Assembly (NCBI RefSeq): GCF_000264905.1
Contig: NW_006763132.1
Span: 2,978,023 to 3,042,022, forward strand
DNA length: 64,000 nt
Reading direction: 5' to 3'
DNA from: Stereum hirsutum FP-91666 SS1
Taxonomy: Eukaryota > Basidiomycota > Agaricomycetes > Russulales > Stereaceae
A model generated the notes under the pieces. It was not told where the DNA came from. It was given only the letters and a program-made list of their open reading frames with translations, and did not search any database. Position 1 is the first letter of the stretch. Every line of letters starts with the position of its first letter. Positions 5,516 to 36,308 of the stretch are shown piece by piece. The position numbers and the translations under genes are program-made.

Positions 5516-7049
5516 ATGGAGCACCATGACGGCAGACAGGACCGGTATGTTCTTGCTCAAGCACTGTGGAAGTTCGTCCTTCTCTCGGCCCTTATTTTTA
5601 CATTTTTCGAACCGTCAAGGAAGATGGATGATTCAAGACGAACCGAAGAGCCCCGTAATGACCTGTACCCAACATTCGAGCGAAGCGATCACAACCTGGA
5701 GTCAGTCCTTGGGGGAATGTACCACTTCCGTTCGCTCGTATGCTCCCAGCAGAACACGGTGAGCAGTATCGATTATGGTCTGAGGAATTGAAGGAAGTTA
5801 TACAGGGCGTGAGTCGATATTGATGTCTGCAATTTCGCAGGAGACTCGTATATCGGCCAATCGCCTACCTACCGTCGTGAGTACTGTTCTTTACAATACA
5901 CTGGTTTAACAGGCATATTATGACGCAAGTCACCTTCTATGTTTTTACCAGCCTGCTATCCCACGCTATTACAACGCTAGGGCAGTGGGAGTAGATTATA
6001 TGCATCCTTCGAGCGCTTCTGCCCTCGTATGTGTAGACTCCATCTTCCGTCATCCCCGCGCGACTCACAAGATGCTTCCTTTGATACTAGACATGGTCTC
6101 CTCCGGCTGGCCAGCCAATGAGTGATGTGTATTCTGATGAGCTCTTGGTTCAAGAACGTCCTCAAGCAGTCGCCGATCCCTTGATACTACCAGCCCCACT
6201 GGTCGGAGACGTTCGACAATATCGACACAAAATAGCTTGTCGACTCACTGCCACCGGTAGAGGCCTGGGAGGTCGTAGTACGATTGACCTAGCCGGTATG
6301 AGCCATATGCAGTCCAATGCGAATCATACATATGGCCTGGTCAGTGTCAAGTTTGGAAGAACGATGGGCCCAGTTAGCATCGTTCCTCAATCAGAATATC
6401 GTCATTCTTCCAAAGCAGGGCAGACTCGATACGGTCGTCCACTCGACTTGACGTCGATAGCATTCGTCAGCGTCGATGGCAACGGTGCCCGAGAGGATGG
6501 AGTCATTGTAGAGGATGCTTTGAAGGGGTTCAAAGGCTGCCCTGTGGAGCTTGAGGGTGCGGACGATATCGTTCTGGAAGGTTCTGTCGTCAATATAACT
6601 GTGCACATAATGGTGAGTCCTGATTTTACAATATATAATTAGTGATTGCAAGGCGCCGGACATGATTTTGACAAGTATGCTCGTACATAGTGGTTTGGCC
6701 GGGAACCCTGGAAGAATTTGATCAGCACAAGATGCTTGCAGGAGAAGCGCATTATCCCAATGACTCGAGGAATCCTCGCCCAAAGATTAGCCAAAGCTCT
6801 GGTCAAGTTCATGCAGGTGAGGATTGCGACCAGTTCTCACGTCTCATGAAACAAACTGAATTATTATCTTAACACGTACAGCATGTCAGATGGCTGGATA
6901 CCAAGTCGGAAATGTCTGCTACACCTAACGCCAGCGGTCTTCTCTCCATCCCAGCTGCGGGTCAAATGGTCATACGCAGTCTCAATCCTGTGACTCACGG
7001 CGGGTGGCAAGTAGACCTCGCTGTTGCTGGCGTTCGCCCTATTATTTAA
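5516..7049 (+). CDS. Uncharacterised multigene-family protein, copy 1
   Basis: Function unknown. One of four related genes in this window (others at 14.4, 29.2 and 34.9 kb). The well-supported part is the C-terminal half. An exon to 6612 carries SKAGQTRYGRPLDL, then LEGADDIVLEGSVVNITVHIM. The next exon (from 6691) carries WFGREPWKNLISTRC and MTRGILAQRLAKALVKF. The last exon (6882-7049) ends with NPVTHGGWQVDL and a short tail. Introns at 6613-6690 (GTGAGT...ATAG) and about 6820-6881 (GTGAGG...ACAG) sit where the other copies have theirs. The N-terminal half is poorly conserved. I place the start at ATG 5516, but ATG 5622 is also possible and exon joins between 5760 and 6120 are uncertain. No signal peptide or membrane segment is evident. 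I recall similar uncharacterised proteins being common in Agaricomycetes but cannot name a domain. Confidence 0.6.
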
Positions 7050-7571
7050 CTTCGAGCTCGTTGTGCGAGGCTACATCTCTAGAAGACGAATGGACGTTAA
7101 TTTACCGAAGTTTCACGATAGTACCTATATTTCACCAAACTATAGCTGACTCTCTGCTCCCTGTTTTCGCTCACTCTCGTGTTCTCTGTACCTACGTGCT
7201 TGGCCGCTAGATGAACACATTTGTAACATATGAGGCTCACACATTGACAAGAACTTGCGCCATCGATACCAGCAAAATACAGGGTGATAAATAATGCACG
7301 CAATAACATATCTTTTCATTAATTCATTCTGCTCAATTCCACTCACTCCTTGTGACGGTTCGATGCCAGCATCTTGGAGTCACAGCAACACGACTTTTCC
7401 GATTGCCTTGAAAGAGACCATGTGAGGGTTAAGTATAATAAGGACATTGGGACAGCAGACCCTCTTTTGACGCCCTTTGTCCATTTTCCATCAGATTCAT
7501 TTCTGCGATCATCCTAGAAAAATTCATGTATGACTGAATCGATTCGCACGGAAGAGGAAGGAAATGACGCT

Positions 7572-9142
<1,571 letters not shown>

Positions 9143-10097
9143 GATGTCTTGAGCCGAACAAGTGAGACATCGAAGGAGATGATGCTGGGAGAACGTAGAC
9201 GCCGAGAAATACAAGTAAATGGGCTACAGTGATAGCTCTACTCTCCGAGCTTGTTTTATACTGATGATTTTCTTTCGCTACGGTACAGAAGCATCATGGC
9301 CACACCAGTACCGTCCTTGCTGGCCGAAGTTCGGATGTTCGTCGCTGATTCGGGACGCAGGAGGCACAATGCTGGTAGTGTTCACATGAGCAGTAGCACC
9401 TATTCCCTATGAATGTCAGTCGATAGAAATCCTGTCCGCATGATGCGATGTGTATAAGGCTCAGATGCCTAGTCGTGCCTTGGTAACGATATGAGACTGT
9501 CCAACATGTAATTGACGGAGGGTACGTGGTGTACTACTCGTTCAGATACTTCTGCAAACAAGCTAGGCGCGGAGTTACAGTCCACATTAGGATAGTCGAC
9601 CTCCAGTTGTGAAGTACTTTCGAGTGGAAAACTCGGATAAGCAACTGGCCACGGCCCGTGAGTGTCACAGAACTGTCTGAATATGGAATGACCATCAAGT
9701 CACGTCGAAAGCCATTGGAATTTCTTGCATGCGCTCAGGGATTCTGAGAACGTTACAAGCACTCCATCTAAAAATGCTCCGAAACTCGAGTGACGCATAT
9801 ACGTCAGAACCACGTCCACAGGAACAATTCATGTAGGCTCAGAGCTAATCCCATTTACAGATGGACCAGCCGTAGGCAGTGCAGACGACGGTGGTGCACA
9901 GCAGAACACATCCGATGTTTTCACGGTCGTTCAGGTCTGGTGACGAGCCTGCAAACCCGTAAAAAGGTTCGAGCTTTCTCGTGCAATGGATAATCGGACG
10001 GTGGATAATGAAGCGATTGCATGCACCTACAGTGGCAGCAGCAAGATGACCTCTCATAGCAGACAAGAATGATGAGGGGGCATGAGACCCTGAGAAA
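9143..10097. other. Promoter side of xylanase pseudogene; nothing else recognised
   Basis: Contains the upstream region of the minus-strand xylanase pseudogene, with a TATA-like element near 9254. No reading frame in the remaining ~800 bases shows a family motif. Confidence 0.5.
9254..9261 (-). promoter_or_regulatory. TATA-like element of xylanase pseudogene
   Basis: GTATAAAA on the minus strand, about 112 bases upstream of the start codon at 9142. The intact xylanase has GTATAAAG about 80 bases upstream of its start, so both paralogues keep a TATA-type promoter. Confidence 0.45.
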
Positions 10098-10913
10098 TTA
10101 GAAGGCAGTTGCACGGATGGTGTGGCAACCGGCTACTGGATGGGACGAAGGGCAGAATGACGAAAAGATGACGCCAGTACGAGGACATGCCGATGATGGT
10201 GCTCCAAGAAAGAATATTATTAGAAAAGAAAGAAAGACAACGGACCACTTGGCTACGACGACAGGGATATAACCCCGTACATACAGCTCTCCATTCGAAT
10301 TTACCGTGGATATCTGCACACTCGCATACTTCAAGCTCTCCTTCAATGGTTTCCCAAACACAGGGTGTTCCAATTTGATTTCTGTGCCGAGGTAAAGTTC
10401 TGCCACCAGGCTCTGAGCGACGCCCTGGTGGGTGGATGTTGTTCTGCGGTCATGGATCTGGAGGCGGAAGAAGACGCAGAGGGAGGTAGGATCGAGACGT
10501 CCTCTGTCGGGCGTCGCTGGAGCGAATGCGGTGCCTGTTCTTGTTCTTGTGCGAGCGGCGACGGTGATGTCTTTGACTTCGTGGGGGTGCGTTTGGGTGG
10601 GTATGAGACGGAATGACGAGAAGGTGGATGAGTTTGTGAGTATGATTGTGATTGTGGAGGAGGAGGAGGACTGGGAGTGGAGCGGTGGTCGGAGGCGGTG
10701 GAGGGACGGAAGAGGCGGAGGGGGAGCCTGTGCGGGTGCGGGGGCGGGTCGGGGGCCGGATGTTGCGCTGGGCGAGTCGGGGAGCGAGGTCAGTGGTTGC
10801 GCCCCCCAAGGAAGCCGAACGTTCGTCGGGGTCGGCTCGAGGCCAGTGCGGCTGAATTTAAGCACAAAAATGCGAAGAGAGAAAGGCAGACGCCGACGCG
10901 AGCAACGAGGCAT
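10098..10913 (-). pseudogene. Truncated fungal RhoGAP (Sac7-like) fragment
   Basis: The minus-strand frame contains a stretch characteristic of fungal Rho GTPase-activating proteins. From about 10495 to 10248 it reads SLCVFFRLQIHDRRTTSTH, then LVAELYLGTEI, HPVFGKPLKESLKYASVQIS and GELYVRGYIPVVVAK. In intact family members this leads into a Cys-Gly and the catalytic GAP helices with an arginine finger (GxFRxSG). Here the frame runs into unrelated sequence after the Lys codon at 10248. The break coincides with a possible donor (AAGTG/GTCCGT) that would give the expected Cys, but no following GAP exon is found down to about 9850. The upstream part is Pro/Ser/Thr-rich and of uncertain frame. I infer a 5' fragment of a RhoGAP gene left by rearrangement. 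Confidence 0.6.
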
Positions 10914-10916
10914 CAC

Positions 10917-14443: not shown

Positions 14444-15877
14444 ATGTACTCTCACACCTACCCATATAATGGAGACGGATTCCATCCCGCCGTTGAGGAC
14501 ATGTCTGACCATGTGAGTACGCCAATCCTTACATATTGTACTTCATTTCATGCTTTTTGGTATGTATTCAGGACGTTAGTACGCTCGACCCGGACATGAA
14601 CCAGCACATAGTTCGTAGCTCCTTTCCCGTCATTCTTATAGCTCGACTTAACGACATTTACAGATATACGATCCAAGCTACAGTGGTACTACTGAAGACA
14701 TGTACCAGCGTGGTCCTGTCTTGTACATGCCTGTGCGTATATTTCTAGAACGTGTCGATGCTTTCAACGAACCCGAATCTGGCAGCGCCCTTCCATCATT
14801 GAGCACTAAAGTGTAACCTGTCTGCTCAGGCCGCACATATGGTAAGGGATGGGCAGCCATACCCATACCTGACAGGTCAGGTAGACGAGATGCATGGGTC
14901 AAGACAGCTACCGGTCAGGACCGTTTGCCTATTCGTGCTTACTACCAACCTATTCACACAACCGAACAGGCTCAGCCCGACGCTAGAGAAAATAACTTTG
15001 CCCAGGACACTGGCGTCATGGTCGATCAGCTCACATCTCAGTTTGCCTCTGTGAGTATCCCTCTGAGCTATTTTAAGGCGCCGCTTCTCGTTGTGCAACA
15101 GGACGCTGACTCGCACATATACACCCATATCTTTCATAAGTCGACTGTGATTGGCGACAGCGACCTTTCTGCACAGACCTCTTCGTCTTCGTCTCTCTCC
15201 AGATCCATCACATTCATCGCACAAGATAGATATCAGCAACAGAAGGGGAAAGACCGTTATCGTCTTCCACACACCGCATCGTCTATTTCCTTTCGTGGCC
15301 ATGGTGAAGGCGAGGATGGAGTTCACGCTGCAGTATGCATTAATCACCCCGGACTCGAGAACGCAGAGGAATGTGTTCTCGTGGGCCACGAGAGTGAAAC
15401 TATCACGGTACACGTATTACCATCGGTGAGAACTTGAATTCCTCCTATGCGTTCTACACCACTGTGAGCATAATATGTTATTAACGCATGTCTTGTCTTC
15501 TGGATTCCTAGGCCGAATACAAATCACAAAATTAGTCCGACTGGAGTGGCACCATCAACATCAAGGCAGGAAAGTCCGAAGGTGGTGGATATAACCCAAT
15601 AACACGTCGACAACTTTTCGAGCGACTTTCTCGCCGTTTTAAGGGATGTGTGGAGGGCCGCCGGGTACGTGGGCATTCATGTAAATCGGATGAACGTCTC
15701 GATCTTTAACTGAAGAGCTGTATCATTTAGAGCTCCTCCAGGTCCACCACCGGCACTGTCCTGAACCCCTTCCCACCGAAGATGACTTTAGGAGATATAG
15801 TGATCCGTAGGCTATACCAAGTGTCGCAAGGATCATGGCAAGTCGAGCTTGGCTACAAGGAGTCAGACTCGCTGTGA
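14444..15877 (+). CDS. Uncharacterised multigene-family protein, copy 2
   Basis: Second and most divergent family member, function unknown. Start ATG 14444 opens MYSHTYPYNGDGFHPAVEDM, followed by short exons split by introns with clear GT-AG ends. The conserved C-terminal half is present: KDRYRLPHTASSISF (the RTRY-x-x-P region of other copies), EECVLVGHESETITVHVLPS, then after an intron ending at about 15533 SDWSGTINIKAGKSE and YNPITRRQLFERLSRRF. After a final intron (about 15669 to 15730) come IVIRRLYQVSQGSWQVEL and a stop at 15877. All junctions can be read without frameshift, so the gene looks intact. The internal intron at about 14887-14924 would be only ~38 bases, so that join is the least certain. 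Convergent with the PKS on the minus strand, about 780 bases away. Confidence 0.6.
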
Positions 15878-16659: not shown

Positions 16660-19600
16660 TCATACAACTGGCCTCCCCCGCCCCTCCAGATAGTCGCATC
16701 CTGCTCTGATTTGCAATGCCATCTGAGCGAGCTATGTTCGCATGTATCAATAATGTCATGAGCAATGTATCACATGAAGATAGAAAAAGACAATTACATT
16801 CTCTTCCTTGAATGCTGCAAAATGATCGCCTGGGATCTCAAGCACTTCGATCCCGCCACGCCCGACCAAGCTCTCCCATTCCGCCACACCAGCTCCAGGC
16901 TTAGATCTATGCTTAAGCCACTCGGGAACATCTTCCGGGGGCACACCTCGGGGATGGAAACCTTCCTTTGAGCGCAGGAGAACGAGTGGCGGGTAGGATG
17001 AACCGTCTACATAACCACCTCTTTTGTCGTCGGAAGCTTGAAAGGTTGATCCGTACCGCTCCAAGAGCTTCGCATTTTCGGTAAACTGGCTCTTTACACA
17101 CATTTGGATACCTTTTCGCCGGCCAGATATGGGTGAAGAGCAGGAGTGTGGCTCCGATGTTTGTGATGTGAGCACGGCGTCGATTACCGTCAAGGACATG
17201 GGGACGTGCTGGACGGGACACGGCGAATCAACGAGTATGACACCCCGGACTGGCGACCTCATCTCTGAATTATTGTATCGAAGGAGCTGCCGCGCAATTT
17301 CGAATGCGACCACGCCACCGAAGGACCAGCCTATAAGATGAAGTCGTATATAAGAATTGGACGTCTGGCAGTGTCAGAGAATTCACAGTTTGATGTATTA
17401 CGCACCAGCTAAAATGACACCTTCGTCGACCGCACATCTTCCGTTCTGGCTCTGACTCCTCTGACTTGCCTCCAGGACGTACTGTGTGTACTCCTTCGCC
17501 ATCTCTTCCACGCTATCCCAGTTCTCCTCTTCAACTCCGTCTGACGCCCGTTCGTTATGGCAATTGCTACCGCAGTCTACGCGGAGGAACTTGGGGTTTT
17601 GGATTCCCCATAGGTCCCTACCGATCGATGGTAGGCGTCGGAGATAAGACAAGAGCCCGGAGCCATCATGGATGAAGACGATAGGGATAGGTATGTGACC
17701 GCAACGAGATGCGACTGAAGTTGAAAAGTCAGATGGTGGGGAAGAAGCCGTGCCTGAGTGTAACGGAAGGGGGCAGGAAGACTGTATAAGCAAAGGATTC
17801 TCGTCGAGCTGGAGTAGTCGACCCAGGGCGACTTGTGTGTCCTCGGTTCCCGCCGCCGCACTTTCGTTACCTTCCTCCTGGAGGGGGTAGAAGTTTGGCT
17901 TTCTCTCCTTGTCTTGGGCGCGCACTCGTACCCCCTTCTGAATTTGGCTGTCCACAAGCATCACCAACTCTCGTACCGTCTCGCAGCGCTCGAACAACGC
18001 GCAGCCTGTCGTCTCCATCCCTGTCCTATTCTCCTTATGAACCCCCAATGCATCCCACAATACACTCTGCACCTCTATACTCGTCAAAGAATCCAGGCCC
18101 AGCGCATCCAGAACAACGTCGTCGCCGATCTCGTAAACCGGAACTTCGAGAACTGAACTTAGTATGGACTTGACCTGAGCGGATATGTCGTCCTTGGTTT
18201 CGAGAGCAAGAATAGAAGGATCCAGGCTCGATCTGGGGTAATAGGTGTGGGTGGCCATGGCGGAGGAGTCATCGTCGTTGACGAGCGTCGGGATAGTCGA
18301 GAAAGAATCGTCGCCAGGAAGATGAGGGAGGAAAGACGTTGTGGATACGTCGGGATATTGAAATTTCTCCACTGCCGCTATAATCTCTTCGATAGTCCTG
18401 CATTCCGCCATGATAGATGTTGACCTCGATGATGGGAGTCGCTGAACGGAGGGGAAACGTTCTCGGAGAGCACCCAATATCTCGATAGACATGAGAGAGT
18501 CGATACCGTAGTTGCTAATCTCAACGTCGAGATCAAGGTCTAGGTCGGCCAGGGAGATATCACAAGTTTGAGAGATAACTTGAATGATTTCTGCGCGAGT
18601 ATCTAGAGCGGGCTCGGGATTGGAGAGGGTGAAGGCGGTGGAAGCCGTAGACAAGTGAGAGGAAGAACGAGAAATATATGGAGGTTGAACCAATGATCGT
18701 CGGTAGTCGGAATGTGTTGGTGATTGGAGTGTCAAGATACGAGAATGGGCTGTTGTCGATATCGCAGATGCGACCGTAGGAAGACGAGCGGGGCCGGCAT
18801 GGTCAGGACCGCTGCGACCGGCGAAAGCAACAAGGCTCCGCCTCAAACTAGTGATTCTGATCTTTCTGAACTCTATTCCTTCCATTCTCGCTACCACCTT
18901 GTTACACCCACCCTCTTTCCCTTTCTCATTGGTGACTTCGATCACTACTACGTGCGCCGTAATACTAGTGGTGCCGCGAAGTAAGGTCATATAAATGCCG
19001 TAGGCGTCGTTTCCGCTTGTGAAATTTGGAGGAGCATCCATGAAGCCGAGTTTGGAGCAGATGAAGGCTTCGGATGGTTCTGCAAGGAGGTTAGCGAGGA
19101 AGCCTGCGGCATGAAGCATTCTGTCCAGCACAACTTTCAACTTTGAGTCTCCCTCCCCGAAAAGTCACAGTGACAGAGGTATAAACGACTCACGTGTCTA
19201 AGAAGATAGGATGCAGTACGAATCCTATCTTTCCTTCCCCAAAGTTCTGCTCGGGCCCTGAACCTCGCAATGTCGGTACCTGAACGATGGCATAACCTTC
19301 CATACCACCCTCCCCGACAATCAATCTCTTGATAGCTCTGAACTCCTCAGAGTACATCACAACTCGCGGAAAGACTACCTCGTATATTGTCCGCGTCGAA
19401 AAGATCTCCACCGAGTATGCCTCATCTAACGACGTGAGACTTGAGATACGATCGGAAATATCGAATTTTATGTCGGAGGAATTAGTTGTGGTGGTAGATG
19501 ACTCGATGGAAGGCGAGAAATTGAAGACGCCTGTGCAATGGGTGGTTTTTTCCGAGTGCTGCGGCCTCTGTGAAGACAATGAAGATTCGATGAGATGGGA

Positions 19601-22600
19601 CGTGACACTGAAGGATCCCATTCCATCCGGACCAGGTATCGTGACTTCAGACCGAATGACCCTCTCCACACCTTCCATATATACCAACGGGTTGGTATAC
19701 TCGACATCCGTTAGCAACGTTACGTTACCACCCGCGTCTTCGTCATCTTGACCACCAACTTCGATGGCAGCCCGGGTGCATGCGACGGCCTCCAACACTA
19801 ACTCCAAGTACACCGACGCAGGACACAATGCGGCCTCGCCGACTTTATGTCCCTCAATGTACCTCCTCACCATCTCTATCGGCGTCTCGAATATAGAGAT
19901 ATTTTCATTTGATGGAGATGGGTGTTGAGTCCAGGATCCAAGCATCGCAAATCTTGACAGGTCTGTTGGTGTGGCGGTGGCGGTGGCGACGCGCTTAGTG
20001 TGGCGATATCGAGAGGTGGTGGTATCTTCTTTGTACGAGACCCAGAACTTCGTCTTCGCAAACGGATACGTTGGCATCGATATGCATCTCGGTGCTTCTT
20101 GGTATCGGCACTCGAAAACCTCTCTCCACTTCACATCCACCCTCGCCATATACATCTGTGCCAAAGTTGAGCCCAATGTAGTCCAAGGCTCGATGCCCTT
20201 GCGCATCGAACCCAGGAACACGGTCCTGCTTTTATGAATGTCGAAGTCGTCACAGGCCACGGTGGAACTCGTCCCGGAATTGGCATTCAGCATTGGTAAT
20301 GTTGTCGTGCTCGGGCCTATCTCCACCCACATCCCCAAACCATCTCCTGCGACACCGTTCCCCATGAAAGTGCCGAGCGAACGCAGTCCACGCTCAAAGT
20401 GAACGGGTTCGGCGCAGTGCATCGCATAGTATTCAGCATTGAAAACGTCCGTGTCGCCAGGCATAACGATTTCGCCATAAACATTCGACACGATAGGAAT
20501 CGTCGGGGCTCGGATTGATATACGTCTAGCGAGGGAAGTGAGGTCGTCTAGCACTGGAAGCATCGTCGGGCTATGATATCCGTACGGCACGGACAGGATG
20601 AGGTTCTTGACGTTCAGTTCATTGAGGTGTAAGCGCAGGACGATGAGTTGGGAGATCGGGCCTGAGATGACGCAGTCCGTCGGACTATTGAAGCATGAGA
20701 TGTGGCACTCGCTGAAATCGTGGCGGAGATCGTGGCTGGTAATGATATCGGAGACAGAATCAGAGCTTATATTGACAGCAAGCATTCCGGTAGCGTTGAG
20801 TGTGCATCTCTGGACCATCCATAACGCTCGATTTGCTATGAGCAGCAAAGCGCCCTTCAGCGTCAGAACGCCAGCGATGACTTGAGCTGCATATTCTCCT
20901 AGACTGATAGAGGTGTTAGTCACATCCTAAGTTCGAGTTGTGTAGAGTCGCGAGTTACCTATGACCCACAACGACTACCGGCCTAACACCCCAGGTCATC
21001 CAAACCTGGGCTAAAGCCCATTCGACGGCAAACACAGCAGTTTGGTGCGCCTGCACTTCCTCTTCCCGGTCCAACCCACTCTTCTCCCCTTCCCCCAGAA
21101 TAATGGCCAAAACTCCGGGGAATCCCATTTTTCTCAGAATCGAATGACATTCGTCGACGCACTTGCGGAATAGCGGAACAGAATGGTAAAGACTCGCACC
21201 CATACCGAGGTACTGTGATCCTTGTCCTGAGAAAACGAAAGCGATTTTGGGAGGGGCGGGGGTAATTTTGGCCGTGATCGAGGGTCGGGTCCGACGCGAA
21301 TCGATGAGCTTGCGCCAAAGGTCTTCCTTGTCAGTAACAGAGAACGATATCCGATGATCGTAGAGCTGTCGTCGTGCCGTAGCCGTATACGTGATATCGG
21401 CCAACCGCGCCTCTTCTCCGTCCGCCGTCTGCAACCACTCAATGTAACGCTCGCGGAGTCTTTCAAGAGCTTCTTCCGTCTTCGCAGATAGCCCAAAGAC
21501 ATATGTCATATTCCGGGTGTCGGGGGAAGGAAGAGGATATATATGTTCCTCCACGACCATGGCCGCATTGGAGCCTGCTGCTCCAAAGTTGTTTACCACG
21601 CCAGCCCTTGGTAGCCCGCCTCCCGGCTGTTTCCACTCCATATTTCTCGTCGGAATGACCGAACCGTCGATCCCAAGGGGCAGGATCCTAGGGTTGAGTT
21701 CTCGGAAAAAGGCCTGACGAGGGATGGTCCTATGTTTGAACATGAGCAACAGCTTCGCGAGACTGGCGGCTCCAGATGCGGCTTCCAGATGCCCTATGTT
21801 CGCCTTGATGGAGGTTATGTGGAGCGGATTATTCGTAGATCGATGCGGTGAGGCGAAGACGTTTCGTATACTCTCGAGCTCAGTCGGATCGCCGGCCTGC
21901 GTGCCCGTCCCGTGAGCCTCCACGACGTTGACCCTCTCAGGCTCGATTTCGGAACGGTGCAATAGGCGTTTGAGTAGCGTGGTTTGAGTGGCTGCGTGAG
22001 GGTGAGTGATCGAATCTGCGAGTCCGCTTTGATTGATGTCGACGCCGCGAATGACGCCTAGTACGTTGTCGTTCTCCGAAAGCGCGTCGGAGAGGCGTTT
22101 GAGAACAAACATTCCGCAGCCTTCAGAGCGGGCATACCCATCTGCAGAGGCGTCGAAGGGTTTACATTGGCCGGTAGGGGAGAGAAAGTGCGCGCGGTCG
22201 AGGCCGAGGAACATCTGTTGGGTTGTACACGGGACGGCGTGGATGAAGAAGATATTGATGATATTGGGGCGAAACGGACCACGGACGTCAAGAAATACTC
22301 GAATGAATAGAGGGATAGCACGTACGTCTGGGCCTGTGATAATGTTGATGCCGCCTGCTACAGCGGCGTTACAGTCTCCACTTGCAAGGGCGCGGCATGC
22401 CTGGTACATGGAAATAAGTGACGACGAGCAAGCTGTTCAGAAAGAATGCCCATTGTGTCAGTGATCGCTCAGGGTACCGAAGAAGAATAGGAAAATTATA
22501 ATTACCTGTATCCACGACGATTGACGGCCCTCCGAAGCCCATAGCATACGATATCCGTCCGCTTAAGAACGCTCTCAACGTCCCTGGACAGATCATGGAC

Positions 22601-24407
22601 CAAATTAGCCAAAATCCCACAGAGAATGATTGCGCTCGGACAGAACTCACCCGTAGCATAATATACATCCACATCATTCTTCAAATTCTGGGTATAATCT
22701 CCGGTAGCGGCACCAACATAACACCCAAAGGTCTCTCTTTTCCACGTATCCGTCGCATCGGGCACGTAACCCGCGTCCTCGAGCGCCTCATACGTCGTGT
22801 GCAGAAGAATACGCTGTTGAGGGTCGAGAGAACGGGCCTCACGAGGTGAGATCCTGAAGAACTTGTTGTCGAATACATCGGGACCATCGATGAAGTTACC
22901 CATACGGGCCTTCATTGTACGAGGCGTCGAGCTCGAGGTCGCGCCCGAGGAGGCTGTCGGGTCTTGATAGTCGGAGATCTGGAAGCGATGCTGTGGAATC
23001 TACGTAGAAGGTGACACTGGGAATGAGGCTCTTGGCGGGACGGAAAAAGACGAGTACTGACCTCCGAGATCGTATTCAAACCTTCCTCCAGAAGCCGCCA
23101 AAGCGAAGATACATCCGGCGCACCAGGCATATTGATGGCCATTCCAACGATCGCGATATGTTCCTTTTGCAACTTGGATGTACCCGTGATATTTGAAGTC
23201 GTACCAGGAACGATGCGGGTCATAGTCAGATCCAGAGATTCGAAAGCGATCGAAGAAGCTGCCAGATATCGTTCGAAAGTTCGTAGAAGACCAGAGCCTG
23301 GACCGATATTGACCACTCGAACGGGTTGGCTTGAAGCATAGGCAGCAGCGGAGAGTAGAACGTAGTCCCAGTTGACCGGATGAAGCATTATAGCGTCTAC
23401 CATGGCCTCTAATAGTGTCTCGCCATCGATGCTTCGTAGAGCTTCACCCGTAAGGCTGGAATGTACCGGACACACCAAGTCAGAGAAGGCGGGGAAGGAG
23501 ATATTCCTACGAGAGATATCGGCAAGAATGTCGTCACGAGCAGCTCCGAGATGTTCTGCGCAATGAAAGAGCGTGGAAACGGTAGATTTGTAGGCAGGAT
23601 AGTTGGCGGATACAGAGAGCGCAAATGATTCCAAAACGTCAGGTCGGCCTGAAATGGTGACGCTGTGATGATCCATCACGGCAGTGAGATACAGAGGAGC
23701 AGGCTGGGTCTGTTCCTGTTAACCGAAAATATGAACTTTTGACTCTTCGGGGAAAAGGATTGATTTACCTCTTCGAACCGCTTCAACACACCCAGGGCAA
23801 TTTCGCGATTCATGCCGAGAAAGACGTAGCTCCACGAGTCATTTTCTGGGTCTTCATCCAACGGGTCGATGTCCTGGGTTGATGCACGTCGATATAGCTC
23901 CGTATGCACGCCTATCCAGAAGGCGACCCGAAAGGCTTCCACAGATTTAGAAATGTAATCCAGTGTGGAGATTGAAGACGCGGACACGCAAGCTGGAAGT
24001 ATTCCAGAGGAGAAGCCGCAGAAGTTGAAAGAAGGCAAGCTATGTCGTGCAGGTGCGTAGGGATTGTTTGAGAGTGTTTGAGTTTCCATGAAAGCGAGAT
24101 AGCGAAGAGATTGCACTAGAAAGATGCGTATTCCGGACATGATGGTCCTGTGTTTCGGTGGCGAAAGATTCCAGAGAAGTGATTCCGACGTGGGGAAGTC
24201 GGAACACGTAATATCGAGGCCGTCTAGTTGAGCAGGAGAGAGGGCAGCGAGCTCTGAAAACAATGCGCGGTGGCATTCCGACATAAGCATGGAACCAGAT
24301 GGAGAAGACGCATCGTGCAAAGCGAGTGTCTGAGTGTGTACAGAGTCCAAGGACGGAGTACCCTGTCCAGCGAATACCACGACAGAAGCTATTTCGTTTT
24401 GATGCAT
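16660..24407 (-). CDS. Non-reducing polyketide synthase, SAT-KS-AT-PT-ACP-ACP-TE
   Basis: Iterative type I PKS expected to make an aromatic polyketide; the architecture fits basidiomycete orsellinic-acid-type synthases. Domains from the N-terminus: SAT (from 24407; active-site region GFSSG); KS (about 23130-21650) with catalytic DTACSSS assembled across the intron near 22440-22505, HGTGTQ and NIGHLE; AT (about 21260-20280) with GHSLGEYA joined across an intron near 20900-20955; PT (about 19940-18870) with His in EGHKVGE and Asp in IFLDT; ACP1 with GIDSL (about 18510); ACP2 with GLDSL (about 18100); TE with GWSFGG joined across an intron near 17310-17400, Asp in LVDSPCP and His in GDHFAAF. The last exon ends [17 protein letters not shown], stop 16660-16662. 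Start is the first in-frame ATG. All introns found keep frame, so the gene looks intact. There are no reductive domains (KR, DH, ER) and no methyltransferase. The SAT has Ser where many family members have Cys (GxCxG). No tailoring enzymes adjoin it. Confidence 0.93.
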
Positions 24408-26249
24408 GATCCGTTTGGAGCGATTCTGACGTCGAGTGATAGGGAGGTCGTTGCTTTTAGAGTGATATCTAGCTGAGATATCAGGGGCCAACAGCGGAGA
24501 GAGCTACAAGAAAAGTAGGTGATAAGTCGAGAGCAGATTGCGAGTGAGATAAAGAGTTCAAAGAGGACATGAGGGCTTGATTTGCAAGTGGAAAGACGGG
24601 ATGCATGCGTCATGAACTCCACAGCTACCAAAAAGACGGGCGGGCGATAGAGAATGGGATGAAGACCATCATGCAGATCGTCTGAGATAGAGACCAAAGT
24701 CCGCCACACCACGCATGCAGCAACATAGAAGAGACATCTGAAGCGGTAAAAGTGGACTATGCACACGAACGACTCACCGCGTATGAGCTTTCCTACAAGC
24801 TGCGATATTGGTACGAGATAAAGGCTGAAAGTTTTTCTTAATTGCCGTCGCGGACGGACTGAGCGAATAGGGAGAGATGCCTCGGCGGTCGCGTCGGTGA
24901 TCAGCGCTGTCAGCGTTTGCAGTGGCGTTCGAAGGAGTGTGAAATTTTGGTGAAAGTGATAGACTAGACACCGGACCGACACCTCCGGTGAAAAGGATCT
25001 AAGTCTTTCTCGACCATTCCTAGATCGTCGATGAAGGAGAGAAGCAGTTCTTGAGCAATTCTATGCAGGATATGGACGCCGATTTTGGAGACCATAGAAG
25101 TTCAGTTGATTCTGTGGCGTGGTCAGCGAGCTCGGAGCAACTCGGGAACAAGCGTGGGAATTTGCTGCTGTCGGCGGTTCACGATGTTCACAATTTGCAA
25201 TGCGAATGTTCACTAGACTCTAGTACCCTCACGATCCACGATTCATACCGCGATAGACCGCGACCCGGTTCGATTCTTCTCTCCTTCAGTCGACGCTTGC
25301 ACTACTTTGTAGAATGATCGTCCTATCATCGTGCGTGGAGCTACAGCATCTCAATGAAAGGAGAGACTGTCAGTGATGTCTCTATGACGATGAGTCCTTA
25401 CATGCTACTCGGGGCGGGGCTCTCAAAAGGCTTGAACCCGTGGGGTGGTCCTCTTTGTCCTTAGTTAATTGCAAGAAGTGTGTAATTGCTCAGATCTCAG
25501 GTTGCTGTGATGCCGCCGCTTGACTTGTTACAGACTAGCTCACAGCAGCTACAACTACTCAGACACCCACATAAGTTTTTCTTGGAACTCGGCGATGAGG
25601 CGTTCAAAAGCGATGCGTCTCTACTTTTGGAGCATCTGGGCCAGCCACGTCAGCAGAAGCGACCTTGTATGAGCAGGTACGCCCCCATGACTGCCCCTCA
25701 TCTTCCACCAACGGCTCAAGTCTTCATCAGTCCTTTGTTTAGTCTCTTTACTTGCGGCTCCGTCGCGTACGTCGCATGTCCAGCCTCGTTCGCGCTGTCG
25801 ATGCCTAGCAGAATTTCAGAAAGTGATCCAGCAACATGCCCGACTATTTTCCTAAGCTGTCGTATATGGCACGAGCCGACTTTGAACCGAGCCTCGTGGC
25901 ATGGGCAGTATACAATCACCCAAACATCCTCTCTATACCGCCCACGTTTATTCTTGAAGCAATCAATCGCCGCATATCCTCACTGACTGACTGCATAATG
26001 TGCCCGAAGAAATGCCATCAGAGGTCATGTACAACTTCTCTTCATCGCATCCGCACACCTGCATTGAACCACCTTTCATCGAAGAATATCCGTCGCGGGC
26101 CGCGCACATCGTAGGCCGCTCCTTGCTCCCTGCTGGATGCCCATGAAAATGACGAGCATTCGTATAAAGACACATTCATCGCGACTCCTTGCATTTATAG
26201 ACTCCCAAGCTCTCATTCTAGTCCCTCGGTCCACTCATACCACGGTAGG
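24408..26249. other. Divergent intergenic region between PKS and xylanase
   Basis: About 1.8 kb shared upstream region of the PKS (minus) and xylanase (plus). A possible 5' exon of the PKS transcript with a GTGAGT donor near 24777 on the minus strand can be drawn but has no ATG. The frames at 25.0-26.1 kb show no family motif. Confidence 0.45.
26162..26169 (+). promoter_or_regulatory. TATA-like element of xylanase gene
   Basis: GTATAAAG about 80 bases upstream of the ATG at 26250, a reasonable TATA position for a strongly inducible fungal secreted-enzyme gene. Confidence 0.5.
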
Positions 26250-29190
<2,941 letters not shown>

Positions 29191-30515
29191 ATGGTCGATG
29201 ATAGTCCACAAGGTTGGTGCTTCATGAGATCCTCGTCGAATTCCCACTATTCGGTGTCTTACTTACCTCGTTCTTTGGCGTAGATCGAACAACGGACGAC
29301 GAGGTTCCGGAACGAAGTGTATACCCCGCAGCAACTACACCTCGGAAGTTCGAGAACTTTCGACTGAGTGATCAGGGACTAGCATCACAGGATTGGCCTT
29401 TCACCAATTATTGGCATGATCCTGTAGGCCAGGTATGTTACTCAGGCTGTTCAACTCGTTGTCCAGAGGCTGACTCGGGATCAGGATCCATACAACTCAA
29501 ATGAACTTGCCCTCATACCGGATAGCTATCTTTCCGCGACTATCTCGACGTCTTCCGCAGATCCGAGTCAGTATCTTGAGGGCCATGGTGCGAGTAGCGG
29601 CGCAATTCCATATGCAGCATCAACGGTATGATGTCGCACGGCTTCTTTCCCCCTCGTGCGGTAACCTTTTGCCTCTTAGTTCCAGCCAGACGGCTCTGTA
29701 ATGGACACGCAAGCCTTCCACTGGGGTATGGCCAGCATGGGCCAGTCAAGTCATGTATCTGTCCATGGTGCGCAGGCAGACATTCACCTCACATCTTCAT
29801 GTTCCCTGGTCGAGGCACCGCACGACCAACCTGGACCACCAGCCAGCCGTATTATCCAAATTCCTCAAGTCCGCTATGTCCACCCTTCCAAAAGGGGGAG
29901 GACGCGTTACGGCCGCCCTATCGACCTCGAACCAATCATTTTTTGCCTCAGTGGTTCTGGTGAAGAAGGTGTCCTAGCTTCAGACGCGTTTGACGGCCCG
30001 TTTAGACACTCGACTTTACACCTCGAAGGTGCAGATGACGTGGTCTTTAGGGCGGATCATGCGAGGAACATCACGATGCATATCTTAGTAAGAATTTTGT
30101 TTTTCCCCGCACTGTCTATACCTGTCCTGTCTATCCCTTAGAGAACTCTGACGCCCGCTGTATTCTGTTCTCGATGATTATTAGTGGCCCGAATGCACAC
30201 CATGGAAGGCTTTGATTAGCACGAAATGCTTTGTAGCGAAGCAATCTGTGCCAATCACTCGAGGCATACTAGCCAAGCGAATCGCCGCCCAGTTGGTCTC
30301 TTTCACGAAGGCATTTACTCACTCACTCACGATACGCTCTCTGGGGCACATTGCTGATGAGTGTATACCAGCAGATACCGCATCCCAGTATACCCGGCTC
30401 AACGGTCCCCTCTCCAGCAGGCTTGAGATTGGACCAGATCTCCATCCGAAGATTCTATCCCGTCTCTCAGGGAGCGTGGCAGGTTGATCTTACGGTTACA
30501 GTACCTATTGTATAA
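29191..30515 (+). CDS. Uncharacterised multigene-family protein, copy 3 (best-preserved model)
   Basis: Function unknown; the cleanest member of the family. ATG 29191 opens MVDDSPQ, then in-frame exons carry VPERSVYPAATTP, DPVGQ, DPYNSNELALIPDSYLSATI and YAASTFQPDGSVMDTQAFHW, with introns at about 29213-29282, 29434-29484 and 29610-29662. The core reads VSVHGAQADIHLTSS, IPQVRYVHPSKRGRTRYGRP, EEGVLASDAFDG, LEGADDVVF and NITMHIL. After an intron ending at about 30182 comes WPECTPWKALISTKC with PITRGILAKRIAAQLVSF. The last exon gives LRLDQISIRRFYPVSQGAWQ, VDL and a stop at 30515. The last intron appears to start GC rather than GT (ACGAAG/GCATTT...ACCAG). There is no signal peptide, membrane helix or known catalytic motif. 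Lies between the intact xylanase and the PEX26-like/COQ9 pair. Confidence 0.65.
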
Positions 30516-30842
30516 TATTACTGCACATTGACAGTGTCTCTCATTTCCACCATTGTAACGATGCTTCCCCGTCTTTTCACATACACCTTCTCTTTACTGT
30601 GGACTATTACCCCTTTGAACCGCCGATATTTTACTCTCTGTATACTTACGTTCCAACACTTGATCCCAAATTGTCAGTAGCATGCGAGGGAGTGTTCACA
30701 ACGTGGAGTGACATAGTAGAATGCCGATCTGCATTATCCTCCCAGACCCACATAATCGTAATAGAAAGCTATGGATAACATGAACGGAATCTAACCAAAA
30801 AAGTGACTCCAAAGACGATAAAAACAAGGATAATAAATAAAT
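30516..30842. other. Convergent 3' flank
   Basis: Between two convergent genes. AT-rich toward 30780-30840; nothing else seen. Confidence 0.4.
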
Positions 30843-32603
30843 TTACACCAGGCCCTTCCCACCCATTCTGACCGTATCTTCCACAGCCTTCACACACTCC
30901 TCCCAGACCCTCCTCCAAACGCCAACCACACTAGCGCCCCCGCCCTGCACATTAGATCCATTGCCCAACCTCCTCCTCACATCCCTCGCGGTAATCCCAC
31001 CCCCACCTGGACTCACTAACCTCGCCCCTTTCTTAACCCGTAGAACGAGCGAAACCAAAGGAAGGACGACGAATACGGCAACAAATACCATCCACTTCGG
31101 TGTGTTCGTGAGACCTTGGAGGTGAAGCCTCGATAACCATGGATGTATAATTTCTCGCAGAAGTGAGAGTGGGCTGGGTGAAGAGATGCGTGATCTTGAG
31201 GGTGCGGTAGAATGTAAAGGCGACGCCATAGACTGTGTTTTCACAAGCGTTGAAGGAGGTGTGAGGCTCGACGGTGAATGCCTACCATTAGCACGCGCCT
31301 CCCCGTTTGAATGTACCGGGCCATTCACGACTCCGTGGCCATTTGCATGGCCGTTCGTTATTGATTGGGGATCATGACCTCTATATTTTGAGATAGGTCT
31401 TTGGGTACCAGGTGCAGGTGTGACTGTTCTCGAGGTCGCCGTGGAGCTGGAACCAGGCGTAGGCGGGCGAGATGAAGATGCCGATGACAATGGTGCCAGA
31501 GAAGAGAGGCTCGAGGAAGAGGACGAGATGTTGCAGGGTCGACTGGATAGAGGAACGGCGGTCTTTGTTGATGTTGTTGAATGAGAAGAGATAGATGGTG
31601 TTGGTGATGGTGAGCGAAGATTTTGTACTGGTGCCGATGACGAAGAAGAGAGCGTGGAGGAGTGAAGGCTTGGTGACGATGGCGGTGGCGTTTGTGACGT
31701 GATGAGATATTGTGCATGGAGAGCTTTCAGCGTTTTGAGAATATGCTGTGTGTTGAATGGTCAATAACCGTAGATAACATTCAGAGAAATACCGATTGGA
31801 GTGATGTCGTATGGAAGACAAAGACTGAGTGGCGATACATCCATAACGTGGTGACTCACCTGCTTTCGTTCCGGCGCTAATTCTCCTTCATACTCCAGAA
31901 ATTCAACAGCGTAGTCCCATTCCTCCAGCACTGGGAGCACGTTCAAGCAATACACCTCCAACACCTTTTCGTATCCGTCCTTCTCCACCGGACCTGTCGG
32001 AACTAGATCCACACTCCCTCGCCTGGCCAACCACTCCTCGATCATCCACCTCCCGACAAGAGCACAGTCCGTCTTTAAGCTTGCCAGCACGAGTGTGACA
32101 AGAATCTGGCTAGGTAACCACGCACTTTCTGGTCTACCAACCCCATCCGGTGTAAAGAGTTGTAGTGACCTCGTATGGAGTGCAGTGATGAGTGACGAAG
32201 ATGAAAGCATAGCATTGCTTCGTAATGGCGCTGGGATGGTCGCAGAATCATCTGGTGGTGAGTTATAGACGGTAGCCTCAAGCGTTATACGAAGGATATC
32301 CCATTTTCGACGCTGGTCCGCATAGAGTCCTTGAGTGCCACCCTGACTGAAGGATTGAATGTGCGGCGAAGGTGGTGCTGGAAGGAGGGTGAAGGCATTG
32401 GCAATAAGGGAGTAAGTGAGAGAGATGTCGCGGTGAAGAAATGCGCGCGCTGCACGAGAGTATATAGAGCGAAGGGTATTAAGGATTGACGGCGGTGGTT
32501 GTATCGACGGTTGTGGGGGTTGTGGCGAGGCTGAGGTGGCTTTCAGCGGAAGAGCATTTGTAGAGGTCATCGTGATGGATGTCGTCGAGGTCACTGAAGG
32601 CAT
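30843..32603 (-). CDS. Protein with one C-terminal-half membrane segment, possibly PEX26-like peroxin
   Basis: Two exons joined by an intron at about 31759-31859 (GTGAGT...ACACAG). Residues 1-250 are helical, with RAFLHRDISLTYSLIANAF, LVGRWMIEEWLARRG and VLEVYCLNVLPVLEEWDYAV. A long Ser/Pro/Thr/Asn-rich linker follows (about 31750-31180). One hydrophobic segment, WMVFVAVFVVLPLVSLVLRV, is followed by a basic Gly-rich tail ending GGKGLV. Helical domain, disordered linker and a single helix near the C-terminus are the layout of Pex26/Pex15, which hold the Pex1-Pex6 ATPase on the peroxisome; the VLPVLEEWDYA stretch also resembles that family. This is an inference from layout and faint similarity, and the tail after the membrane segment (about 70 residues) is long for a strict tail anchor. 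Start is the first in-frame ATG (MPSVTSTTS). Divergent from COQ9 with 255 bases between starts. Confidence 0.5.
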
Positions 32604-32858
32604 GATAGACAAGTAGGGATACTATTCTCAAAGCTGAGTTAGCCTAGCCGTCGTCGTCGTTGCTGTTCAGGACGACTCGTCAACAGAAGCCGCATCCCCT
32701 TGTGTTTGTCAAGAAACCGAGTCGATTTCACATGGCCAAACATGGTGCCACCCAACTCGTGCCGCCGCCGCCGCCGCATTGGCAATTGTTCCCACGAGCC
32801 CCTTTCCTTCTTCCAACCAGCTTGTTCGAATTGAGTATCCCGGCCGTTCTCGAGGGTC

Positions 32859-33745
32859 ATGTCTGCTCTAAGGTCAGTTGCCTAGTAAAGTATAGCTACA
32901 AAATCTGTTGAATTTTCTCCATTCATAGAACACGTCTCCTCCAAGCCGCCATACCTCTCGTACGAGAACACGGCTTCACCCGTCAAGCTCTTGCCAACTC
33001 CGTTCTGCATCTTCAAGCAGAGTCACGCTCAGAACCGTTACCGGACACAGCTGTAACAACTCTCTTTGGTGAGGGAGATAATGCTCGCCGGACCCTCATC
33101 GATGCATGGCTCGAAAAGGGCAGGATTCAGATGAAGTCGAGCGCTACTTCCTTGACGCCCGACTTGAAAGAAGTATTGCGTTCCAGGCTGGGATACAACG
33201 AGCCCGTTTTATCTCTTTTGCCGGAGGTGATTAACGTCGTCAAAATCCTTCCTGAAAGTGCTACTAAACTTATTGTATCAGGCTTTCGCCCTTCTCGCTT
33301 CTCCCCAAAATGGTCTTCCGCCACTCGACGTGAGGCCTGCCCTCCGTCATGCCACGAGCGTAGCCAATGACGCGTGCATCGCAATTCGCGACGAATCCCT
33401 TGGTGTAAGCATATTCACATCCTTTTGCTTTGTATCTTGATTAGGAACGTTTGTCTTCAGCCTTCATGGTACACGCAGCGTGCCACACTAGCCACAATAT
33501 ACACAGCCGCTGGTAACGTATTCTTTTCCTTCCGATCGAGGATTTGGTCTACTCCCGAGTCTCACTACCCTCTGTCGGTTCCAGAGCTTCACCAACTCAC
33601 CTCGCCAGGAACTGCCCATGCATTCCTCGACTCCATCTTCGACACGGCTGCCTCTCTTCGGACTGCGGCTAGCGAGGCTGAGCTCTACTCTCAATATGTC
33701 GTGAAAAGCTGGGCGGCTCTCGTCAGGAGTTCCGGTGTACTCTGA
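32859..33745 (+). CDS. COQ9: Ubiquinone biosynthesis protein COQ9
   Basis: Lipid-binding mitochondrial protein that assists COQ7 in coenzyme Q synthesis. The spliced product begins MSALRTRLLQAAIPLVREHG, matching the TetR-like helix-turn-helix at the start of the COQ9 domain. It continues with ALANSVLHL, AWLEKGRIQM, RLGYNEPVLSLLPE and the diagnostic C-terminal block WYTQRATLATIYTAAELHQL, then SPGTAHAFLDSIFD, ending VRSSGVL at 33745. Introns at about 32872-32929, 33228-33281, 33404-33460 and 33513-33583 have normal GT-AG ends. There is no in-frame ATG upstream before a stop, so this model lacks an obvious mitochondrial presequence. Either a 5' exon was missed or import relies on the basic amphipathic N-terminus (MSALRTRLL). 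Divergent from the PEX26-like gene. Confidence 0.85.
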
Positions 33746-34931
33746 CATCTCTTTCTCTGATCACGCCATCGCCATTCTATACGGTCCAATATCACCGTGG
33801 CCCTCGAGCCATCTATCGCATGTTATGCACTTTGTGAGGTCCAATCACGCGCTCCGTTTCTGCCTACGTTGGAATGACCGTCTTCTTCTCGACCACGTCT
33901 GCATTAATCTGCGCAAGGATCAGTACATGGCCCTCCCAAGTCCTACAGTACTTCCTTTTGATTGAGTTTACTCCCTCGACGAGCCTGCTTCGTGCGGAAA
34001 GCGCCATTTGCAGTGACTGGCCGTTCAGCACAAGCGATACACAAGCTGGTCAGGACGCTTCCCCGATACGTTCATGGTTACTGTATGTGGAACGCCGAGT
34101 GCACCGAGTTTCGATGTTTGGAGCATACACTCGATAGTTTCAATATGGAGTTATTCGCTTTCGTTGACTGTGCGGTGTATCGGTTCAAGCCTGCGCATCC
34201 ATCTGCGAGCCTCTGTTCAACTTGCATATTTTTCAGCGGTTGGCTACCGGAAAATGCTCCTTGTGGGACAACTCTTTTGAACAGATGAAGACGGTATTTG
34301 TCCTGTTTTTCGACACTACTTGGGTGGTTGGAAAGGATCTCCAAGGTGCAGTGTATCAGGACGATCCTTCACGGTATGTTTTATCCGAGGTGATTATACT
34401 CTATATTTGGAGTTCACGCATTGTTCCATTCATAGACATACGGCTCCAATGTGGGTCAGAGTCAACACAGCGCCTGCACTAATGGCAGTATGCGCGGACG
34501 ACTCTGATTCCTCATTGACCACCAGGCGTCTTAGGGCGTTTCCTGAGTCTTTCGGGCGTCACTTCCTGTCTTAGAATGGTTTAGGTTTTCATTGGTATCA
34601 CCGTGAATGGCGTCTTCACTAGGCAAAGCGTCATAGTTAGCGATGTGGATGTTCCCGTCCGTATCAAAGCTATGCATGTCCTGCATTCACTCTTGCTGGT
34701 CAGCAAAATTACATCACAAGGAGGCGACACCCATCGACCTTGCGAGTCGTTTCAGCGCTGTATCTCTACGGCTGTCATATGAAGTTCCCTGAGATTATAA
34801 GCTGCGCTGTGCGTGAAGGACGAGTTGTCCTCAACACTTCCTCCACCCTCTTTGCATCGCTCCACAACCCCAAGAAGTGACCACTGCAGCTCTTTACGCA
34901 TCGCACCCGTACCCGACTCGCACAATCTGGG
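33746..34931. other. Intergenic, nothing recognised
   Basis: About 1.2 kb between COQ9 and family copy 4. Open frames of 60-110 codons have no family motif and overlap one another in different frames. Confidence 0.4.
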
Positions 34932-36308
34932 ATGGCAACTCATAGCACTGATGGTCCGACCCGATTTCTCGGTGTGTTGTCGTTTTACTCAAATATATTT
35001 GCGGATGCAGTTAATAACGATACTTCTGAGCCTGCGTACCATGATCATACGGAGGCAAATGATTCTTTTCTCCCTGACATGGAGAGGCTTGCCGCTGATG
35101 CTATGCAATGTGGTGACGTCTTTCCACGACGCGGGCACCCTCATGCGGATTATGCGGCAGACGACCCCGACCATGTAATGATGCCACCCCACTCTGTCCA
35201 GTTCAACTTTTACTGACCTTGATCGCGATGACAGTATACCTTGATAAGACCGTCCGAAGTCGGTATACTCTCGGTTTAACCTATCTCTCACTTAGCTTGA
35301 AGCTCTTCACATATTTCAGGTCGTTCTCGGAGCATATTCCAATTCTATGTGGCCCAATACTCCCTTTGTACGTTTTCCCGAATGGATGAACCTCGCCGTG
35401 TCACACTTGGCAAAATTCGCTCACACATACTACTCTCCTTGTACACAACATGTCGTCCCAGGTCGGCACCTTCGGTACCTGCCTTGACGCTTCCGTAGAT
35501 TCGTCAGCCACAAGCTACGTACGTGTTGACCGTAGCATTGCTTTGCAAAATTTATCGGTGAATCTATACAATATTTCCCCCGGAGACGATTGCTTACCAC
35601 TTCCACTCATCTTCCCTAGTCTACGTCACCGTCTATGGTTCATATTCCTCAAGGACTCTATTCCCACCGCTCTAAGAAAAGCCGCACTCGTTACAGCCAT
35701 CCTCTCGACAACGGTTATATATCGTTCTGTCCCTCTGGTACGAGCAAAGAGGGGATCCCACTCCAAGATGCCCTGGATAGCAAGTTGCACCGTAGCATTG
35801 GAGGGCACAAAGGACGTCGTTCTACAAAATCATCCTGTCAACGTCACTCTGCACATCATGGTATGTCAGCACTTCTTCGCTTCCTGGTGTTAATGACCAT
35901 AACTTGCGCGTTGCCCGCTTCGCAAACAAAGTGGCCGGGTCGCAATCCATGGAAAACTTTGATCTGCACAAAGCGCTCTAACAGAGAGAAACGCCTCCCG
36001 ATCACTCGACTAGAACTTGCAAGGCGCCTTGCGAGAGCTATAAACCGATTTACCCAGGCAAGCGCCACAATAGCCTTAACATAATCACGAGTTATAATAA
36101 TCATGAGGATTGACAGAATCCACCCAGTGCCGAGCTGGAAAGCTCGGATTCCACTAATAGTTCTTCCTTTGCGGTGCCCTCACCGAATGACCTCGTGTCT
36201 GATCAAATTTTTCTGAAACGGATGTATCCTGTGACGCACGGAGGATGGCAAGTCGACCTCGCAGTATTGTCTCAACAATCTAATACAACGACAGCCATTA
36301 CTCCCTGA
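34932..36308 (+). pseudogene. Uncharacterised multigene-family member, copy 4, frameshifted
   Basis: Recognisable family member with broken frame. ATG 34932 gives MATHSTDGPTRFL, then an exon with EPAYHDHTEANDSFLPDMER. The core is split over three frames: SSSLVYVTVYGS (frame of 35583), IPQGLYSHRSKKSRTRYSHP and EGIPLQDALDSKLHR (frame of 35635), and VALEGTKDVVLQNHPVNVTL (frame of 35450). No splice sites explain the switches at about 35630 and 35785. Downstream exons are good: WPGRNPWKTLICTKR with LPITRLELARRLARAINRF, then YPVTHGGWQVDLAVLS and stop 36306-36308. The last intron would use a GC donor (CCCAG/GCAAGC...GACAG). A sequencing error could mimic one shift but hardly two, so I call it a pseudogene. 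Confidence 0.6.

What the first reader, a model, noticed from the sequence alone, without database searches (positions are those of the whole stretch)
5516..36308. Dispersed, unnamed multigene family: four copies and perhaps a fragment in 31 kb
Genes at 5.5, 14.4, 29.2 and 34.9 kb share one C-terminal layout: an RxRYxxP block, a (L/V)EGADD(I/V)V-type strand (divergent in copy 2), an (I/V)T(M/V/L)H(I/V) exon end, a W(P/F)xxxPWKxLI exon (weaker in copy 2) with an ITR helix and Arg/Lys-rich Leu repeats, and a last exon with (Y/N)xV(S/T)(H/Q)GxWQV(D/E)L. Introns fall at matching places. N-termini are unrelated in sequence but similar in size. No known catalytic or targeting motif is visible. All four lie on the plus strand but are interspersed with unrelated genes, which suggests dispersal rather than simple tandem growth. 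This is the best candidate here for an undescribed family.
Basis: partly seen in the sequence, partly recalled or inferred. Interest (0 to 1): 0.75.

Follow-up and report, generated by a model that had tools for sequence, protein, structure and literature searches.

The report
Expanded mushroom family of unknown function
The four look-alike genes are real members of a large, uncharacterised protein family found in many mushroom-forming fungi, which has multiplied in this wood-rotting fungus; what the proteins do is unknown, but their conserved part looks like a small folded binding domain.

Summary
Confirmed and extended. The window is Stereum hirsutum FP-91666 SS1. Four plus-strand genes (5.5, 14.4, 29.2, 34.9 kb) share a homologous C-terminal domain of about 160 residues on three exons. 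Two are deposited as uncharacterised proteins: STEHIDRAFT_153110 (copy 1) and STEHIDRAFT_108020 (copy 2). Copy 4 has a broken frame inside the domain; no further fragment was found in the window. A profile built without the window copies picks out these four genes. I count 27 places with the domain in this genome. Thirteen are of the window type, found elsewhere only in unnamed metagenome pieces (search-limited); two are of a conserved type with 128 database matches, the named ones all Agaricomycetes. The nearest named family is Pfam DUF6741, below cut-off in every score I saw; the genome's true DUF6741 gene has the same introns. AlphaFold2 gives a confident alpha/beta domain, beta-grasp-like in its C-terminal half, with no significant PDB match; the single significant fold match is an uncharacterised Pithovirus protein. 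dN/dS is well below 1 in two paralogue pairs, neither from the window. Best guess, unproven: a nuclear or cytosolic regulator with a disordered arm and a basic, probably nucleic-acid-binding domain.

The parts
5516..7049 (+). copy 1 = STEHIDRAFT_153110 (P0005). Exons by my model 5516-5544, 5620-5758, 5952-6026, 6091-6612, 6691-6816 (W exon), 6882-7049; the deposited 389-aa model reads through intron 1 and has one more small exon
6376..7037 (+). conserved C-terminal domain of copy 1 (three exons)
14444..15877 (+). copy 2 = STEHIDRAFT_108020 (P0001, 285 aa), the most divergent window copy; core exon ends 15425, then 15536-15664 and 15731-15877; the deposited model splices its N-terminal part differently from mine
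29191..30515 (+). copy 3: exons 29191-29212, 29284-29432, 29485-29625, 29680-30087, 30185-30310 (W exon), 30372-30515; last intron modelled as GC-AG
34932..36308 (+). copy 4: N-terminal exons uncertain; core exon from 35620, W exon 35932-36057, last exon 36117-36308; last intron modelled as GC-AG
35784..35795 (+). break of the conserved reading frame in copy 4 (pseudogene or assembly error)
6691..6816 (+). W exon of copy 1 (126 nt, phase 0 introns on both sides)
15536..15664 (+). W exon of copy 2 (129 nt by my model; lacks the PWK motif)
30185..30310 (+). W exon of copy 3 (126 nt)
35932..36057 (+). W exon of copy 4 (126 nt)

Best explanation
The four genes belong to an Agaricomycete protein family: a long, disordered N-terminal arm followed by one C-terminal alpha/beta domain (about 160 residues). 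The conserved introns cut this domain as: N-terminal extension plus strand 1 | strand 2 plus the long helix (W exon) | the C-terminal strand hairpin. Shown here: homology, exon plan, predicted fold, wide conservation, expansion in Stereum, dN/dS below 1 in two paralogue pairs. Inferred: the proteins are intracellular, most likely nuclear; the conserved basic residues of the domain (including K/R spaced as one face of the helix) contact a polyanion, most likely DNA or RNA, and the disordered arm recruits partners, so that the protein works as a regulator. The Stereum copies would be paralogues whose N-terminal arms have diverged, giving different partners or control.
Confidence: 0.35

Rival explanations
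1. The domain is a beta-grasp protein-interaction module (like RA, RBD, PB1 or ubiquitin-like domains) and the proteins are signalling adaptors or scaffolds, not nucleic-acid binders.
For: The C-terminal half has the strand-strand-helix-strand-strand order, and most rows of the fold comparisons of both models are, by their names, beta-grasp domains: ubiquitin, SUMO, ELMO RBD, PI3K, PB1 of Cdc24.
Confidence: 0.3
2. The window copies are products of a birth-and-death gene family that drift with little function; only the conserved gene (contig C20) matters.
For: Copy 4 has a broken frame, copy 2 is highly diverged (branch 2.28), N-termini are not conserved, and window-type queries found only Stereum hirsutum records and unnamed metagenome pieces.
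Against: Copies 1-3 have intact spliced frames with conserved core residues; dN/dS of a pair of the same type elsewhere on C2 (C2:2656/C2:2661) is 0.35; splice sites are kept.
Confidence: 0.25
3. The family belongs to the NDT80/PhoG transcription factors, as the UniRef name of one homologue (Cerrena zonata) says.
For: One record, P0069, carries the name 'NDT80 domain-containing protein'.
Against: Pfam hmmscan of that protein, listing up to E 10, gives only DUF6741; NDT80 is not among the three families matched by any of 72 members at E<=0.01. The genome-wide NDT80 search is uninformative because its controls were silent too.
Confidence: 0.03

Closest known systems
Agaricomycete uncharacterised family of STEHIDRAFT_125987 (S. 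hirsutum contig C20; named homologues from genera that I place, by recall, in Russulales, Polyporales, Agaricales, Hymenochaetales and Atheliales)
   Same: Homologous C-terminal domain over 161 columns (hhalign prob 99.8), same introns around the W exon in the two Stereum genes, disordered N-terminal arm
   Different: Its W exon reads WPGYxPWSRQIPTRDFR..PITRAKLAKNVAK.VQRF and its start SDRRRYVEE; 27% identity in the hhalign alignment; the window type lies on one side of a 100/100 branch
Pfam PF20526 DUF6741
   Same: Weak matches in 42 of 72 homologues at E<=0.01 (best 6.3e-5); the DUF6741 gene of this genome (contig C5) has the same W-exon introns and a WAGY...LARRIARSVEHF block
   Different: None of three window copies scanned matches it at E<=1, nor deposited copies 1 and 2 at E<=10; seven pan-family proteins score 13.5-22.7 bits against a cut-off of 27 and an eighth has no match. 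One homologue, P0065, does carry a precomputed PF20526 label
B3-type DNA-binding domains (LlaJI.R1, At1g16640, ARF; that they are B3 is recalled)
   Same: The two highest rows for one model, 103 and 96 residues aligned over the whole domain
Beta-grasp domains (ubiquitin-like, RA/RBD, PB1)
   Same: Order of strands and long helix in the C-terminal half
Uncharacterised protein A0A481ZAI3 of Pithovirus LCPAC401 (predicted structure)
   Same: Only significant fold match: Foldseek E 2.2e-5, probability 1.00, target TM 0.62 over 162 alignment columns
   Different: 15% identity, rmsd 7.6 A over the whole alignment, function unknown; the viral library was searched with one model only; no relative by sequence found in IMG/VR

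Membership tests
Pfam DUF6741 (PF20526) | profile match above Pfam's gathering score (27 bits) | tested here: not met
   window copies: 0 of 3 spliced models at E<=1 (copy 4 not scanned), 0 of 2 deposited proteins at E<=10; pan-family: 7 of 8 proteins scanned match at 13.5-22.7 bits, the eighth not at all. Against this, P0065 carries a precomputed PF20526 label
Pfam DUF6741 (PF20526) | shared gene anatomy with the genome's true DUF6741 gene: phase 0 introns around the W exon (my own criterion, not Pfam's) | tested here: met
   C5 gene: acceptor directly before W, donor two codons after F, as in 17 of the other 20 members; copies 1, 3 and 4 among them, copy 2 differs slightly
Agaricomycete STEHIDRAFT_125987 family | homologous C-terminal domain over its full length | tested here: met
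   hhalign prob 99.8, E 1.3e-28, 161 columns; independent profile finds all four window copies, copy 2 by its last exon only
NDT80/PhoG | PF05224 profile match | tested here: not met
   no PF05224 row for P0069, the record named NDT80, nor for any of 72 members at E<=0.01
KilA-N/APSES | PF04383 profile match | tested here: not met
   no row for any of 72 homologues at E<=0.01; the two KilA-N places found in this genome lie elsewhere
B3 DNA-binding fold | fold match well above background | tested here: inconclusive
Beta-grasp fold | fold match well above background and matching sheet order | tested here: inconclusive
Nucleic-acid-binding regulator | binding to DNA or RNA | not testable with these tools
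   needs an assay

The most novel reading that the evidence does not exclude
A previously undescribed fungal regulator family with its own nucleic-acid-binding domain, related in fold to a protein of giant viruses, conserved in many Agaricomycetes and amplified to more than two dozen diverging paralogues in Stereum hirsutum.
Probability: 0.25. Interest if true: 0.65.

Novelty: new variant of a known kind. Interest (0 to 1): 0.42.

Why it matters
A domain kept across many Agaricomycetes with 66 nearly invariant positions carries no assigned function in any record I saw, and no paper in the held library mentions DUF6741. Its conserved gene is a tractable target, and the Stereum expansion offers natural variants of one fold. 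If it proves to be a nucleic-acid-binding domain, it would add a regulator class to mushroom biology; the lone giant-virus fold match would then become a question about origin.

Tried and rejected
NDT80 membership (one record's name) is not supported by Pfam; the genome-wide NDT80 search had silent controls. KilA-N/APSES: no sequence match. RRP4_S1 in copy 2 (E 0.024-0.028), Cupiennin in P0007 (E 0.3), and single NOG1 and PHD hits among the 72 (E 0.0012, 0.0025) are taken as chance; PDB sequence hits at E 0.36-1.8 likewise. Foldseek against PDB gave no match at E<=0.001 for either model; families not listed there are not excluded. A relative in IMG/VR viral contigs was sought with the pan-family alignment and not found. 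Rfam: no match in the window. A fifth copy or fragment in the window was sought and not found. The first homologue searches, with window-type queries, found four proteins (of 3985 candidates) and two (of 401); only the conserved paralogue as query opened the family. The absence of the window type from other named fungi therefore rests on word-limited searches. A subclade joining all four window copies with C2:2976 and C11:1142 (95/91, where the bootstrap had not settled) did not survive when the long-branch row C11:1142 was left out and C2:2938 added. Papers: one search found none; some searches listed 1, 1, 11 and 7 papers, of which I saw titles and starts of abstracts, and passages of one (PMC9769804; they concern other genes). 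The rest were not opened, so absence of this family from print is not shown.

Full report
Identity of the window. The window is G000:C2:2978023-3042022 of a 45,982,361-base genome in 38 contigs. Two homologue searches returned proteins of Stereum hirsutum FP-91666 SS1 whose contig length (3,727,085) equals that of contig C2: STEHIDRAFT_108020, which is copy 2 apart from exon choice, and STEHIDRAFT_153110, which is copy 1. No deposited protein for copies 3 and 4 turned up in these searches, which only cover proteins within a length range.

Check of the observation. I read all four regions and modelled them by hand. Each has the described C-terminal layout, with phase 0 introns before and after a 126-129 nt W exon. 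Copies 1, 2 and 3 give an intact spliced frame. Copy 4 does not: the conserved frame changes between about 35784 and 35795, with no room for an intron, so it is a pseudogene or an assembly error. Copies 3 and 4 seem to use a GC-AG last intron, as does the neighbour at C2:2976; no transcript confirms this. A search of the whole window with two profiles found the four copies and otherwise only hits with E above 1. With the profile that holds no window copy, copy 4 is strong (1.1e-10), copies 1 and 3 modest (2.1e-4, 0.0011), and copy 2 is found by its last exon only (0.0033).

Family in this genome. Six-frame searches with several queries found more members; counts are lower bounds. I count 27 places: 13 of the window type (the four, plus C2:2976 just upstream of the window, C2:2938, C2:2656, C2:2661, C11:1531, C11:1564, C11:1142, C10:179, C1:508), two of the conserved type (C20:722, C20:740), 11 of a third type (three in a row on C7, four on C20, and C2:921, C14:959, C1:3399, C1:3320; five of these 11 were checked only by profile) and one DUF6741 gene (C5). 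Weak hits at C3:3316 and C7:1370 were not followed and are not counted. Splice sites were checked in 21 of the 27: 20 have AG directly before the first codon of the W exon (W in most, V or F in two), and 18 have a phase 0 GT or GC exactly two codons after the conserved F/Y. Two others have the donor at three or four codons. The last exception is copy 2: its acceptor lies two codons before its W, and the donor that the script picked is not the one in my model, which lies further on. The donor test is loose by itself, since an in-phase GT is common; its force lies in the shared position.

Family in other fungi. With window-type queries only Stereum hirsutum and unnamed metagenome pieces were found. 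With the conserved paralogue at C20:722, my spliced model proved identical to STEHIDRAFT_125987, which supports the exon reading, and 128 proteins matched at E<=0.01 among 307 candidates, 120 of them listed. The species named in the list are, by my own knowledge of their taxonomy, Agaricomycetes; many rows are unnamed metagenome proteins. I aligned 72 of the listed 120 (A3). The alignment of ten cores from this genome matches A3 by hhalign with probability 99.8 and E 1.3e-28 over 161 columns. In two trees of 40 rows the 12 window-type rows that each held lie on one side of a 100/100 branch (with C11:1142, with C2:2938 instead; no tree held all 13). Copies 1 and 3 are sisters (97/86; 94/85), and copy 2 joins C2:2938 (100/100). 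The placing of copy 4 is not resolved. The growth is therefore partly local and partly dispersed.

Named families. Pfam gives nothing for the spliced copies 1 and 3 at E<=1 and only a sub-threshold RRP4_S1 hit for copy 2. In the pan-family, 42 of 72 members match DUF6741 at E<=0.01, best 6.3e-5; the seven scores seen are 13.5-22.7 bits against a cut-off of 27, and an eighth protein has no match, while one other homologue (P0065) bears a precomputed DUF6741 label. The genome's true DUF6741 gene on C5 carries the same two introns around a comparable block. I read this as distant kinship with DUF6741, not membership. No paper in the held library mentions DUF6741. Four further searches listed 20 papers; apart from passages of PMC9769804, which concern other S. 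hirsutum genes, I saw only titles and starts of abstracts, none of which names this family.

Function. In A3, 66 core columns are at least 90% one residue, and 13 of these are R, K or H against 3 D and no E; in the ten cores of this genome it is 5 of 25 against none. In the conserved gene the helix reads ITRAKLAKNVAK.VQRF; its K/R at i, i+3, i+7 and i+11 would lie on one side. The window copies keep part of this pattern. The pan-family arm is rich in Ser and Pro; the window copies' arms less so. Together these fit a regulator with a nucleic-acid-binding domain, but nothing tested here shows binding, and an adaptor role for a beta-grasp module is nearly as likely. dN/dS, by a simple count without a significance test, is 0.13 for C20:722/C20:740 and 0.35 for C2:2656/C2:2661, so at least these genes look constrained; the window copies themselves were not tested because they are too diverged.

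Verdict. It is a divergent, Stereum-expanded branch of an Agaricomycete family with distant kinship to DUF6741, so I rate it a new variant of a known kind, of moderate interest.

Noticed in passing
window 16756-24503, minus strand: Polyketide synthase gene between copies 2 and 3: its open frames match SAT, ketoacyl synthase, acyltransferase, dehydratase-type, carrier-protein (two stretches) and thioesterase families, the layout of a non-reducing PKS; an orsellinic-acid-type product is a guess.
   Followed up: partly
window 7790-8332 (minus) and 27393-27941 (plus): Open frames of two glycosyl hydrolase family 10 genes, by eye very similar to each other, in opposite orientation, near copies 1 and 3: a second duplicated gene pair at this locus.
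   Followed up: partly
window 30311 and 36058; L008: Last introns of copies 3, 4 and of C2:2976 appear to have GC donors instead of GT.
   Followed up: partly
G000:C7:1477500-1484200 (L073): Three members of a third type of the family stand in a row on one strand about 3 kb apart, apparently tandem, unlike the window copies.
   Followed up: partly
Pithovirus LCPAC401 A0A481ZAI3: The only significant fold match of the domain in the libraries searched is an uncharacterised giant-virus protein; origin unexplained.
   Followed up: partly
P0069, Cerrena zonata: UniRef name 'NDT80 domain-containing protein' is not supported by Pfam: likely a misannotation.
   Followed up: yes
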